From contig NZ_LR593887.1 in NCBI RefSeq assembly GCF_901538355.1, positions 4,998,920 through 5,062,919 of the forward strand: a stretch of 64,000 bases of DNA, in the 5' to 3' direction. Under the pieces are notes generated by a model. The model made no database searches. It saw only the letters and a list, made by a program, of their open reading frames with translations, and was not told the DNA's origin. Within the stretch, counting starts at the first letter, position 1. The number at the start of each line of letters is the position of its first letter. Of the stretch, positions 52,129-56,453 are shown one piece after another. The position numbers were made by a program, and so were the translations under genes. Source of the stretch: Tuwongella immobilis (GTDB taxonomy: Bacteria; Planctomycetota; Planctomycetia; Gemmatales; Gemmataceae).

Positions 52129-52400
52129 CGGATCGTCCTCCCCGAGAAGCTCGACGAGCGTGCCAAAATGGGAATTCGCGAGGGGCTGGAGAGATTGCCC
52201 ATACCCCAAGCAGTATAACCGCCTTGACAACGTGGCGTCAAACAAACTCCTGCCATTGTGAAGAAATTCGGAAAATTCCGTGATGGCTGGGGCGTTTTTC
52301 CTGTCGAACGCTGGGCCGACTCGTGCTTGACGTGGGCGGGGGGTCGAGATATGGAACGGTTCGATCGATGGTCCGCCGATCTGAGCAGGGAGGCTCGCAC

Positions 52401-53141
52401 ATGCGTCTGATTGCCCCGGATCTTTTGGAAGAGAGTCTCGGTCTCTCCTTGGCAATCCAGGTGGGTGTGCTGCTGGTGGGGCTGATGCTGTGGTTTGGTG
52501 GCTATCGGTGGCACCGATTTTGGATTGTTCTGGGAGTGACGGCATTTGCCGGCTTGCTCGGTCTGGCATCGGGGCGAGCGATTGGCGGACAGGTGCTCGT
52601 CTTCGGCATGCTGCTGGCGGTGGCCGGTGGGATGCTGGCGATGGAATTGGCCCGATTGCTGGCGTTCACCATCGGCGGATTTGCTGCGTGGGTGGCGGTG
52701 CATTCGCTGCTGCCGCACGCTCAGGATTTGTCGGTCGCGTTCCTGATCGGCGGGCTGATGGGGATTTTTCTGTACCCACTTTGGATTATGACCATCACCA
52801 GTTTCGTCGGGACGCTCTTCACCTGGTATGGTGGGTTGGGAATCCTGGTCAAATTCACCAAAATCAATGCGATGACCTTGGCGAATGATCGGGTGGCGAT
52901 GCTGAACGCGGGGATTGCGCTGGCGACGATTTTGGGCGTGATTCTGCAAGGCTGGCTGGAGCGACGCTTGCGTGGCAAACCACACGGATCATCCCACGGA
53001 ACGGGACATGGCAAGAAAGCGGACACAGCGGATTCCGACTCCGCCTCCACGGGCAAAGAATCGCGAGTGAAATGGCCCGGTCGACCGCCGCGATTGGTGC
53101 GAAATATCCGGGATTTATTCAGCACCCGCGAATCTCGATAG
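52401..53141 (+). CDS. polytopic membrane protein, unknown function
   Basis: A 246-residue protein; the start at 52401 follows AGGGAGG. About seven hydrophobic segments fill the first 185 residues, for example QVGVLLVGLMLWFGG, WIVLGVTAFAGLLGLASG and AWVAVHSLL. The tail is polar, with HGSSHGTGHGKK and a Ser/Asp stretch and then basic residues. The family is not recognised. Membrane number, Gly-rich helices and a short cytosolic tail resemble small exporters or channel-like proteins, but nothing fixes a function. The gene diverges from the S41 protease and precedes bioB by about 100 bases. Confidence 0.72.
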   Translation: MRLIAPDLLEESLGLSLAIQVGVLLVGLMLWFGGYRWHRFWIVLGVTAFAGLLGLASGRAIGGQVLVFGMLLAVAGGMLAMELARLLAFTIGGFAAWVAVHSLLPHAQDLSVAFLIGGLMGIFLYPLWIMTITSFVGTLFTWYGGLGILVKFTKINAMTLANDRVAMLNAGIALATILGVILQGWLERRLRGKPHGSSHGTGHGKKADTADSDSASTGKESRVKWPGRPPRLVRNIRDLFSTRESR

Positions 53142-53242
53142 CAAAATTGCGAAAAGTCGAAGAATGGCACTCTCACCACTTCGCCGAAATTTAGCTACAA
53201 TCCAACCGGATGAAGTCGTTGCGATTCACTGGAGAGTGGACC

Positions 53243-54340
53243 ATGCCCGTAGACCCGATTGACCCGATCGCGATTTCCCGTCGGATTCTCGCCGGTGGTG
53301 AAATCACCCGCGAAGAAACGCACGCTCTGCTGAGCCTGCCGTGCGATGGGGAAGAAATCTACGATCTTTTCTATGCCGCCCACAAGGTCCGCCGCCATTT
53401 TCATGGCAACCGGGTGACGTTCTGTAGCATTGTGGCCAGCAAGTTTGGCAAATGCTCCGAAGATTGCAAATTCTGTGCGCAATCCGCACATTACGATACG
53501 AATATCACCTCCCACGAAATGATGAGCAAAGAGCAGGTCAAATCGGCCTGCACCGATGCCCGCAATCGGGGAGCCAGCTCGTTTGGGATCGTCAACAGCG
53601 GTCGCGGCCCGAACAAGAAGGAATGGCCGAAGATTCTGGAAGCCATTGAAGGGATGAAGGAAGTCGACGGCATCGGCCACTGCGCCACGCTGGGCGAACT
53701 CACCCCCGAACAGGCCCGCGATCTGAAGGCCGCCGGCATTGCGCGAGTGAATCACAACTTGGAAACGTCCAAGGAATTCTACTCGCAAATCGTCAAGACG
53801 CACACCTGGCAAGACCGCGTGCGCACGCTGAAGATCGCCCGCGATGCAGGCTTGGAACTTTGCACCGGCTGCATCTTCGGCATGGGCGAAAGCATTGAAG
53901 ATCGCGTCTCGGTGGCGTTCAGCCTGAAGGAAATCAACCCGCATGTGGTGCCGATTAACTTCCTGAATCCGATTCCCGGCACGCCGCTGGAACACGCTCC
54001 CAAGCTGCGCCCGCTGCAAATTCTGCAAATCACCGCCGTGATGCGATTGGTGCTGCCCCGCACCGATCTGAAAGTCGCCGGTGGCCGCGAAAAGAATCTG
54101 CGCGACCTGCAAAGCTGGATCTTCTACGTGGGCGGCACCAGCGCCATCATCGGCAACTACCTGGCGACCATGGGACGCACCAACGACGAAGATATGCGCA
54201 TGGTGCAAGACCTGGAACTCACTTGGACGTCCGAAGTGGGCAACGCCGACGAAACGAAGCCGTTTGAATTTGGCACCCTGCCCGGCTTCGAATCGATGCA
54301 GCAGCTCGAATCGCGCATCACCTCGCTGCCGTTGGTGTGA
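53243..54340 (+). CDS. bioB: biotin synthase
   Basis: A 365-residue radical-SAM enzyme inserting sulfur into dethiobiotin. KFGKCSEDCKFCAQSAHY gives the CxxxCxxC set for the 4Fe-4S cluster. GHCATLGELT and LCTGCIFGMGE supply further cysteines that bind the 2Fe-2S cluster, and VAGGREKNLRDLQ carries its arginine ligand. The start at 53243 has GGAGAG upstream; an ATG at 53210 in frame is less likely. The C-terminal stretch after the barrel is slightly longer than usual (FEFGTLPGFESMQQL). bioF lies two genes downstream, with a nucleotidyltransferase gene in between. bioA, bioD and bioC are not in the window. Confidence 0.96.
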   Translation: MPVDPIDPIAISRRILAGGEITREETHALLSLPCDGEEIYDLFYAAHKVRRHFHGNRVTFCSIVASKFGKCSEDCKFCAQSAHYDTNITSHEMMSKEQVKSACTDARNRGASSFGIVNSGRGPNKKEWPKILEAIEGMKEVDGIGHCATLGELTPEQARDLKAAGIARVNHNLETSKEFYSQIVKTHTWQDRVRTLKIARDAGLELCTGCIFGMGESIEDRVSVAFSLKEINPHVVPINFLNPIPGTPLEHAPKLRPLQILQITAVMRLVLPRTDLKVAGGREKNLRDLQSWIFYVGGTSAIIGNYLATMGRTNDEDMRMVQDLELTWTSEVGNADETKPFEFGTLPGFESMQQLESRITSLPLV

Positions 54341-54415
54341 ACCGATTCCGGGGCATGATTGTCTTCCAATCAGTCCCCGGATTCCCATGCGACCCGATGC
54401 GGAGCGAACCGAACG

Positions 54416-55267
54416 ATGGACCGATTTTCGTCATCGCCCGCATCGTCGTCAGTGCATCACCCGACCCCGTTCGGCAATCCGCACGCGATCGATCCGCACT
54501 GGTTGGCCCGCATTGATGCCGAACTCTCGGCCATCGAATTGCGGGAACAGGTGCGGATCTTGTACGCGGTCGAGTCCGGCAGCCGCGCTTGGGGATTCCC
54601 ATCTCAAGACAGCGATTACGATGTGCGGTTCCTTTACGTCCGCCCACGGGATTGGTATCTTTCCATTCGCGTGGAATCGCAGCGCGATGTCATCGAATGT
54701 CCGCTCGATGATCTTCTCGATTGCAACGGTTGGGATCTCCGCAAAGCCCTGCAACTATTCGCCAAGGCCAATCCTTCGTTGACCGAATGGTTGCAATCGC
54801 CAATTGTCTACCGCGATTGCGAAGGTTTGGCCGACCGTCTGCGCGGGCTGCAATCGGAATTCTTCTCCCCCGTTGCGGCATTGGCCCACTATTTGAGCAT
54901 GGCACGCGGCAACTTCCGCACCTTTCTCCAAGGGCCGACCGTCAAATTGAAGAAATATTTCTACGTACTTCGCCCCGTGTTGGCGGCTCGCTGGTTGGAA
55001 CAGGGGCGCGGGATTGTCCCGATGCCGTTCGCCGAGTTGCTGACCGTGTTGCCCGATGATGCCCCGCTTCGAGCCGACATCGAATCCCTGCTCGCCAAGA
55101 AGTTGGCCAGCGAGGAACTCGATTCCGGGCCGCGAATCGATTCGATTCACGAATTCCTGACACGGGAACTCGAACGATTGTCTCCCAACAGCGTGTCTCA
55201 CCATGGGCCGCAAGGTTCGATGGAGACATTGGATGCGCTATTTCGGGATTATCTGAAGAATCGGTAA
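54416..55267 (+). CDS. RlaP-type nucleotidyltransferase
   Basis: A 283-residue cytosolic protein of the PF10127 type (polymerase-beta fold, named RlaP in RNA repair loci). ILYAVESGSRAWGFPSQDSDYDVRFLYV contains the nucleotidyltransferase signature GSxxxG...SDxD, whose two aspartates bind the metal. YLSMARGNFRTFL and KLKKYFYVLRPVLAARWLE are the typical following helices. The start at 54416 has GGAG 11 bases upstream; a TTG at 54359 is an alternative. It lies between bioB and bioF, 7 bases before bioF and 75 bases after bioB. No RNA ligase or other RNA repair gene is adjacent. Role in this position unknown. Confidence 0.85.
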   Translation: MDRFSSSPASSSVHHPTPFGNPHAIDPHWLARIDAELSAIELREQVRILYAVESGSRAWGFPSQDSDYDVRFLYVRPRDWYLSIRVESQRDVIECPLDDLLDCNGWDLRKALQLFAKANPSLTEWLQSPIVYRDCEGLADRLRGLQSEFFSPVAALAHYLSMARGNFRTFLQGPTVKLKKYFYVLRPVLAARWLEQGRGIVPMPFAELLTVLPDDAPLRADIESLLAKKLASEELDSGPRIDSIHEFLTRELERLSPNSVSHHGPQGSMETLDALFRDYLKNR

Positions 55268-55274
55268 GCCGACG

Positions 55275-56453
55275 ATGCCAGACTGGATGGACGAGGAACT
55301 GCAACTCCGTCACGATCGCGGCCTGCTGCGACAACGCCGATTGCGCACCGTGCACGGGGTGCAGATGGCGCAGGATGGTCATTCGCTGATCGGGTTTGCC
55401 TCGAATGATTATCTCGATCTGGCCCACGATCCACGCCTCGCACGAGCCGCCGCACGAGCCGCCCAACGCTTCGGCACCGGCGCAGGAGCGGCCGCACTCG
55501 TCACCGGCTACCAATCACCGCACGCCGCATTGGAACACGCCTTGGCACGCTGGGAATGCTGCGAATCCGCCGTGTTATTCGCCAGCGGATACACTGCCAA
55601 TGTGGCGACGTTGGCCAGTCTGGCCGATCGTTCCGATGCCATCTTCTCGGATTCGCTGAATCATGCGAGTTTGATCGATGGTTCCCGGTTGAGTCGGGCC
55701 ACCGTCGCCGTCTACCAGCATCTCGATTGCGATCATTTGGAATCGCTGCTCCGCACAGTCGGGGCATCCGCCCGGCGACGCATCATCGCCACCGATACCG
55801 TGTTTAGCATGGATGGCGATGTGGCACCGCTGGCGGAATTGATCGAACTGGCCGAACGGTACGATGCGTTGCTGGTGCTGGATGAGGCCCACGGAACCGG
55901 GGTGCTGGGACCGACCGGCGGCGGACTCGTGGAAACGCTCCCGGAATCCGCTCGCGGCAATCCCGATCGACGCCTGAAAATCGGTACGCTGTCCAAGGCA
56001 TTGGGCGGACAGGGCGGATTCGCCGTTGGCCCGCGCCGCAGCATCGAATTTCTGGTGAATCACGCACGCGGATTTGTCTTTTCCACGGCAATGGCTCCAC
56101 CGTTGGCGGCGATTGGTCGAGCGGCCGTGCGGATTGCCCGCCAAGCAACCGACCGCCGCGCCACGCTTCAGCGACTGCACACGCGCCTCGTGAATGGATT
56201 GCAGACGCTGGGCTATCCACCGCCGCCCAGCCGCCTGCCCACGCCGATTGTGCCCATCATCCTGGGCGATCCCGATGTGGCGATTGCCGCCAGTCAGCGA
56301 TTGCAACAACTCGGCTTTTTGGTTCCCGCCATTCGCCCGCCGACGGTGCCGATCGGCACATCCCGCCTGCGCATCAGCCTTTCCGCTGGACACAGCGACG
56401 CCCAACTCGACGCCTTGCTGGACGCCCTGCGAATCACGCTTCCGCCGCGATAA
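55275..56453 (+). CDS. bioF: 8-amino-7-oxononanoate synthase
   Basis: A 392-residue PLP enzyme of the alpha-oxoamine synthase group. It condenses pimeloyl-ACP (or CoA) with alanine at the start of the biotin ring steps. LIGFASNDYLDLAHDPR near the N-terminus, SDSLNHASLIDG with the His that stacks on PLP, DEAHGTGVLGPTGGG with Asp and His, and GTLSKALGGQGGFA with the PLP-binding lysine are all conserved. The start is 7 bases after the nucleotidyltransferase stop without a clear ribosome site, so it may depend on translational coupling to that gene. bioB is on the same strand upstream. Confidence 0.94.
   Translation: MPDWMDEELQLRHDRGLLRQRRLRTVHGVQMAQDGHSLIGFASNDYLDLAHDPRLARAAARAAQRFGTGAGAAALVTGYQSPHAALEHALARWECCESAVLFASGYTANVATLASLADRSDAIFSDSLNHASLIDGSRLSRATVAVYQHLDCDHLESLLRTVGASARRRIIATDTVFSMDGDVAPLAELIELAERYDALLVLDEAHGTGVLGPTGGGLVETLPESARGNPDRRLKIGTLSKALGGQGGFAVGPRRSIEFLVNHARGFVFSTAMAPPLAAIGRAAVRIARQATDRRATLQRLHTRLVNGLQTLGYPPPPSRLPTPIVPIILGDPDVAIAASQRLQQLGFLVPAIRPPTVPIGTSRLRISLSAGHSDAQLDALLDALRITLPPR

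What the first reader, a model, noticed from the sequence alone, without database searches (positions are those of the whole stretch)
54416..55267. RlaP-like nucleotidyltransferase between bioB and bioF
The gene order bioB - nucleotidyltransferase - bioF is tight at the bioF end (7 bases) and bioF lacks its own ribosome site, so bioF expression may depend on translation of the nucleotidyltransferase. An RNA repair-type nucleotidyltransferase has no obvious place in biotin synthesis. It could adenylylate a biotin-pathway protein, or just be a passenger.
Basis: partly seen in the sequence, partly recalled or inferred. Interest (0 to 1): 0.6.

Follow-up and report, generated by a model that had tools for sequence, protein, structure and literature searches.

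The report
RNA-repair gene lodged in biotin operon
A gene for a probable RNA-end-repair enzyme has landed between two biotin-synthesis genes in this one bacterium; relatives have the two biotin genes side by side without it and keep the repair gene elsewhere, so it is most likely a passenger and not a part of biotin synthesis.

Summary
The gene is real: 54416-55267 encodes a full-length RlaP nucleotidyltransferase (PF10127, 301.7 bits) with its motif intact, between bioB and bioF, 7 bases before bioF. The link with biotin is not conserved. Of 95 family genomes, 27 have bioB; 22 of these have bioF next on the same contig and strand. In 21 of the 22 the gap between matches is 55-203 bases, without room for a gene; only the window's genome has 937. 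The four other family genomes with this RlaP subtype give no bioB match at 1e-60. None of 28 other planctomycete RlaP loci and none of 80 loci elsewhere (mainly Bacillales) lies beside bioB or a true bioF. In Bacillales the orthologues often sit in RNA-repair islands. The window's genome has archease-rtcB about 0.85 Mb away. Best reading: a working RNA-end-repair nucleotidyltransferase that moved into an older bioB-bioF pair in this lineage. BioF may now depend on its mRNA or translation (untested). The 'passenger' alternative is favoured; 'adenylylates a biotin protein' has no support. Ordinary.

The parts
52323..53141 (+). membrane-protein-like gene; first gene of the conserved block (this gene - bioB - bioF)
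   Evidence: no Pfam match; tblastn homologue upstream of bioB in many family loci; 'membrane' is judged from its sequence by eye
53243..54340 (+). bioB, biotin synthase (longest ORF starts at 53210; probable start 53243)
   Evidence: TIGR00433 375.4 bits over cut-off 225; ribosome-site duplex -6.8 at 53243, 0.0 at 53210
54344..54384 (+). hairpin after the bioB stop, no T-run behind it; possible mRNA 3' end or attenuator
   Evidence: 75-nt gap folds at -27.1 kcal/mol, z -2.37, 3 of 200 shuffles as good; no plus-strand terminator-like site found
54416..55267 (+). rlaP, RlaP-family nucleotidyltransferase; conserved core from about residue 30; invariant G55 S56 R57 W59 G60, S66 D67 D69 R71, D102
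   Evidence: PF10127 301.7 bits; alignment of 34; AlphaFold2 pLDDT 89.8, pTM 0.85
55275..56453 (+). bioF, 8-amino-7-oxononanoate synthase
   Evidence: TIGR00858 422.9 bits, cut-off 426.45; weak ribosome site -3.0; orthologues directly follow bioB in relatives

Best explanation
[quoted passage not shown] in this genome the likely partner is the separately encoded archease-RtcB. In an ancestor of this lineage it moved into the space between bioB and bioF, downstream of a hairpin behind bioB, and now precedes bioF by 7 bases, so bioF may share its mRNA and perhaps its translation. It has no role in biotin synthesis. Shown: family, intact motif, predicted fold, lineage-specific position, bioB-bioF adjacency without it in relatives, archease-rtcB elsewhere. 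Inferred: activity, substrate, partner, direction of the change (insertion here), co-transcription and coupling.
For: PF10127 at 301.7 bits; motif intact among 34 sequences; confident model whose best viral match is a phage nucleotidyltransferase (TM 0.81, 35% identity). Family of 95 genomes: 27 have bioB at E <= 1e-60; 22 have bioF on the same contig and strand, 21 with gaps of 55-203 between matches and only the window's with 937; 12 junctions read base by base have stop-to-start gaps of -17 to 146. Only five of the 95 have this RlaP subtype (over 280 bits; the next best is 189), and the other four give no bioB match at 1e-60. The tree puts the window with three of those four (98/91). None of 28 other planctomycete loci, from 27 genomes, has bioB within the flanks held, and the two with a BioF-like gene carry glycine C-acetyltransferase. 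None of 80 loci elsewhere has bioB or bioF within the flanks held, while 43 of 80 have TROVE, Hen1, Pnkp or RtcB. Own genome: archease-rtcB; bioA and bioD adjacent about 1.5 Mb away, and the only PF10127 gene of the genome is the window's. Prediction that RlaP restores lost nucleotides before ligation: PMC7824862, passages read.
Against: No planctomycete locus of this subtype has an RNA-repair gene of the kinds sought within the flanks held (0 of 28), so the RNA-repair role rests on the family and on Bacillales. Own genome has no TROVE and no PNKP ligase match. PNKP ligase is not enriched in the five genomes with this subtype: 3 of 5, against 34 of the other 90. RtcB was not counted in genomes lacking RlaP, so its presence is weak evidence of partnership; G091 has the subtype and no RtcB match. 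The best solved-structure matches are small-molecule nucleotidyltransferases and HalB, with low TM-scores (0.31-0.43 by query length among E <= 0.001). Only one genome of the window's genus is held, so the age of the insertion and whether selection keeps it there are unknown.
Confidence: 0.86

Rival explanations
1. Regulatory co-option: the RlaP enzyme is unrelated to biotin, but its position makes bioF translation depend on rlaP translation, so signals acting on rlaP also set BioF levels. This is compatible with the best explanation and adds to it.
For: 7-base spacing; weak site before bioF; hairpin between bioB and rlaP could separate bioB from rlaP-bioF expression.
Against: Weak sites are common among the window's ORFs; bioF in relatives follows bioB at -17 to 146 bases in 12 junctions, so close spacing does not depend on rlaP. 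No sigma-70-like promoter was found near, which neither helps nor hurts.
Confidence: 0.3
2. Biotin-pathway modifier: the enzyme adenylylates BioB, BioF or another biotin protein, or a pathway intermediate.
For: Position only; some Pol-beta nucleotidyltransferases modify proteins or small molecules (ANT and AadA among fold matches, and the MNT-HEPN pair at rank 38).
Against: Orthologues occur in relatives with no bioB match and are away from bio genes everywhere else examined; bioA and bioD are elsewhere in the genome without it; 21 of 22 linked bioB-bioF pairs lack it.
Confidence: 0.03
3. The gene is a decaying or non-functional insert.
For: Lineage-specific position; poorly conserved N-terminal stretch.
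Against: Full-length open frame with the motif residues kept, confident model, third-position G+C (0.675) like its neighbours (0.739 and 0.689).
Confidence: 0.04

Closest known systems
RlaP nucleotidyltransferase family (PF10127)
   Same: Full-length profile match, motif and fold; 59% identical to the G036 orthologue, 49-54% to the 14 Bacillales and Chloroflexota orthologues in the alignment
   Different: Sits between bioB and bioF; no RNA-repair gene beside it
Paenibacillus RNA-repair islands (WYL, TROVE/Ro60, RlaP, Hen1, Pnkp, RtcB)
   Same: Orthologous RlaP
   Different: The window has none of these beside it; its genome has archease-rtcB elsewhere, and no TROVE or PNKP ligase match
bioB-bioF pair of the window's family
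   Same: Same genes, order and upstream membrane-protein-like gene
   Different: Relatives with the linked pair have no gene between bioB and bioF

Membership tests
RlaP (PF10127) | profile match over the curated cut-off along the whole domain | tested here: met
   301.7 bits against 23; profile 4-249 of 249
RlaP (PF10127) | Pol-beta type catalytic motif, GS...DxD | tested here: met
   G55 S56, D67 D69 invariant in 34 sequences; that these are catalytic is recalled from the superfamily
RlaP (PF10127) | encoded beside an RNA ligase or other RNA-repair genes | tested here: not met
   none beside the window gene; 0 of 28 planctomycete loci; 43 of 80 loci elsewhere do. The family is defined by sequence, so this weakens the functional inference, not membership
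RlaP (PF10127) | genome encodes an RNA ligase | tested here: met
   archease-rtcB in the window's genome
RlaP (PF10127) | nucleotide addition to RNA ends | not testable with these tools
   predicted, not shown, in the literature passages read (PMC7824862)
biotin-operon gene | conserved with bio genes across relatives | tested here: not met
   21 of 22 linked bioB-bioF pairs lack it; no other RlaP locus is beside bioB or a true bioF

The most novel reading that the evidence does not exclude
In this lineage the RNA-repair nucleotidyltransferase has been recruited as a link between tRNA damage and biotin supply: rlaP expression or activity sets BioF output, tying fatty-acid synthesis to the state of the translation machinery.
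Probability: 0.04. Interest if true: 0.6.

Novelty: new member of a known kind. Interest (0 to 1): 0.13.

Why it matters
Mostly as a caution: gene order in one genome suggested a biotin-linked role, and comparison across the family removes it. If bioF is translationally coupled to rlaP, it would be a small case of a passenger gene becoming part of the expression of a vitamin pathway. For annotation, the gene should be called RlaP-family nucleotidyltransferase, not a biotin gene.

Tried and rejected
A biotin-linked role was tested by gene order from both sides (bioB and bioF in 95 family genomes; RlaP in 95 family and 392 phylum genomes, and 80 loci from genome contigs) and rejected. Two BioF-like genes near RlaP in L150 and L151 looked like support; both pass the glycine C-acetyltransferase model and fall below the bioF cut-off, next to a gene that looks like threonine dehydrogenase (recalled from its sequence, not scanned). 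Note that the window's own bioF is also just below that bioF cut-off, but it is far below the glycine C-acetyltransferase cut-off. Partner association: PNKP ligase is not enriched with this RlaP subtype. Flanking repeats at the insertion: nothing that I read as a target-site duplication. sigma-70-like promoters: none found, shuffles average 1.2; planctomycete promoters may differ. Search of solved-structure sequences: three weak hits to unrelated enzymes only. Literature: searches for bioB/bioF/nucleotidyltransferase/planctomycete, RlaP, Pnkp/Hen1/RtcB, Tuwongella, ycgL, biotin operons in Planctomycetes and RlaP/RNA repair/RtcB listed no paper whose title or abstract start is about RlaP in a biotin operon; only listings were seen, except passages of PMC7824862, PMC6514570 and PMC8567305. 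Burroughs and Aravind 2016 is not held; it is known here only as cited in PMC7824862.

Limits and dropped rows: five of 27 bioB genomes could not be counted for linkage (G005, G050, G028, G077, G068); G050 and G028 have about 3 kb behind bioB without bioF or RlaP. The tree used 54 rows: the window, 24 of 28 planctomycete rows (L144, L146, L148 with a stop inside the stretch taken, and the partial L163, left out) and 29 of 80 others; long branches make deeper joins unsure. The alignment used 34 sequences: the window, 19 of 28 planctomycete and 14 of 80 others. The 80 loci are the best 80 of 286 relatives. Flanks held differ between loci, from 0.5 to 8 kb on a side, because of contig ends.

Full report
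What is there. The window lies in a single-contig 6.69 Mb genome. Its size fits the planctomycete Tuwongella immobilis, given as 6.7 Mb in a passage of PMC8567305, but no tool names the organism and the name is my inference. On the plus strand a membrane-protein-like gene (52323-53141) is followed by bioB (to 54340), a 75-base gap, the nucleotidyltransferase (54416-55267), 7 bases, and bioF (55275-56453). The nucleotidyltransferase matches one Pfam family, RlaP PF10127, along the whole profile at 301.7 bits. It is the only PF10127 gene found in the genome.

Is the protein intact? In an alignment of 34 orthologues, the motif GSRxWGF with S..SD.D.R behind it, and a later aspartate, are invariant or nearly so. 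The model has mean pLDDT 89.8 with a disordered start. Its best viral structural match is a nucleotidyltransferase of the Klebsiella phage vB_KvM-Eowyn (TM 0.81, 35% identity); solved-structure matches are more distant nucleotidyltransferases (ANT, HalB). The N-terminal 29 residues or so are not shared, so the true start may lie further in, although only ATG 54416 has a ribosome-site-like sequence among the starts tried.

Is the position conserved? No. In 95 genomes held for the family, 27 have a bioB match at E <= 1e-60. In 22 of these bioF follows on the same contig and strand; the gap between matches is 55-203 bases in 21, and 937 in the window's genome. Twelve of the junctions, read base by base, have stop-to-start gaps from -17 to 146. 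The upstream membrane-protein-like gene is shared by many of them, so the block membrane gene - bioB - bioF is probably ancestral and rlaP the newcomer. Five bioB genomes could not be placed: in G005, G050 and G028 the listed bioB and bioF are on different contigs, and none of the three has any RlaP match; for G077 and G068 I entered no linked bioF.

Where is this RlaP elsewhere? PF10127 occurs in 48 of 95 family genomes, but only five, the window's included, carry the subtype (over 280 bits; the rest 189 or less). The other four (G036, G055, G072, G091) give no bioB match at 1e-60; a very divergent bioB is not excluded. Across the phylum, 24 of 392 genomes have a relative at E <= 1e-20. I read the surroundings of 28 planctomycete loci other than the window's, from 27 genomes: no bioB; two have a BioF-like gene that is glycine C-acetyltransferase. 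A tree groups the window with G036, G055 and G091 (98/91), so the gene was probably in the family before it came to lie between bioB and bioF; transfer within the family is not excluded.

What does it do? In 80 loci from genome contigs, mostly Paenibacillus and Bacillus, none has bioB or bioF within the flanks held. 43 of 80 have at least one of a TROVE protein, Hen1, Pnkp and RtcB (20, 25, 24 and 14 loci), often in a row, and 50 have a WYL protein (families checked on one representative each). Loci of one genus are not independent. PMC7824862 (passages) describes RlaP as a nucleotidyltransferase predicted to restore lost nucleotides to RNA ends before ligation; PMC6514570 (passage) says it occurs across several counter-RNase repair systems. 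The window's genome has archease directly upstream of rtcB at about 5.899 Mb, some 0.85 Mb away, but no TROVE or PNKP ligase match. PNKP ligase is present in 3 of 5 subtype genomes and 34 of the other 90, so there is no sign of enrichment in so small a sample. The RNA-repair role is therefore inferred from the family, not from this locus.

Is bioF expression tied to rlaP? The 7-base spacing allows it. The site before bioF is weak (-3.0), but so is the typical site of long window ORFs at their first ATG (median -3.15), so absence of a site is poor evidence for coupling. A hairpin behind bioB (z -2.37) without a T-run might end or protect the bioB message; strong hairpins also follow bioB in three of seven relatives folded (L174, L175, L177, z -4.75 to -6.13), a weak one in L173 (z -1.17), and nothing notable in L178, L179 or L183. 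No promoter-like site was found. This remains open.

Verdict. The gene is an ordinary RlaP that sits in an unusual place in one lineage. bioA and bioD lie together about 1.5 Mb away, so bioB, bioF, bioA and bioD are all present and rlaP accompanies only one of the two pairs.

Noticed in passing
family genomes, e.g. L015:536-2250, L011, L012, L009, L008: About 20 family genomes carry two different RlaP genes in tandem (read off the table by eye; both checked with Pfam only in L015); in G043, G038, G032 and G033 a PNKP-ligase match follows on the same contig and strand, and in G094 it follows a single RlaP. Looks like a two-RlaP Pnkp repair operon.
   Followed up: partly
L052, L062, L065, L083 and others: Paenibacillaceae islands: WYL protein and a neighbour without Pfam match on one strand, then TROVE - RlaP - Hen1 - Pnkp on the other; other loci have RtcB beside RlaP.
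   Followed up: partly
L174, L175, L177 between bioB and bioF; window 54344-54384: Strong hairpins of unlike sequence just behind bioB even where bioF follows directly; perhaps a way to set bioB and bioF message levels apart.
   Followed up: partly
L170:2217-4245: In G033 the membrane-protein-like gene lies directly upstream of bioF and no bioB is found, as if bioB had been lost from the block.
   Followed up: no
L186:905-2811: Archease directly upstream of rtcB in the window's genome.
   Followed up: yes
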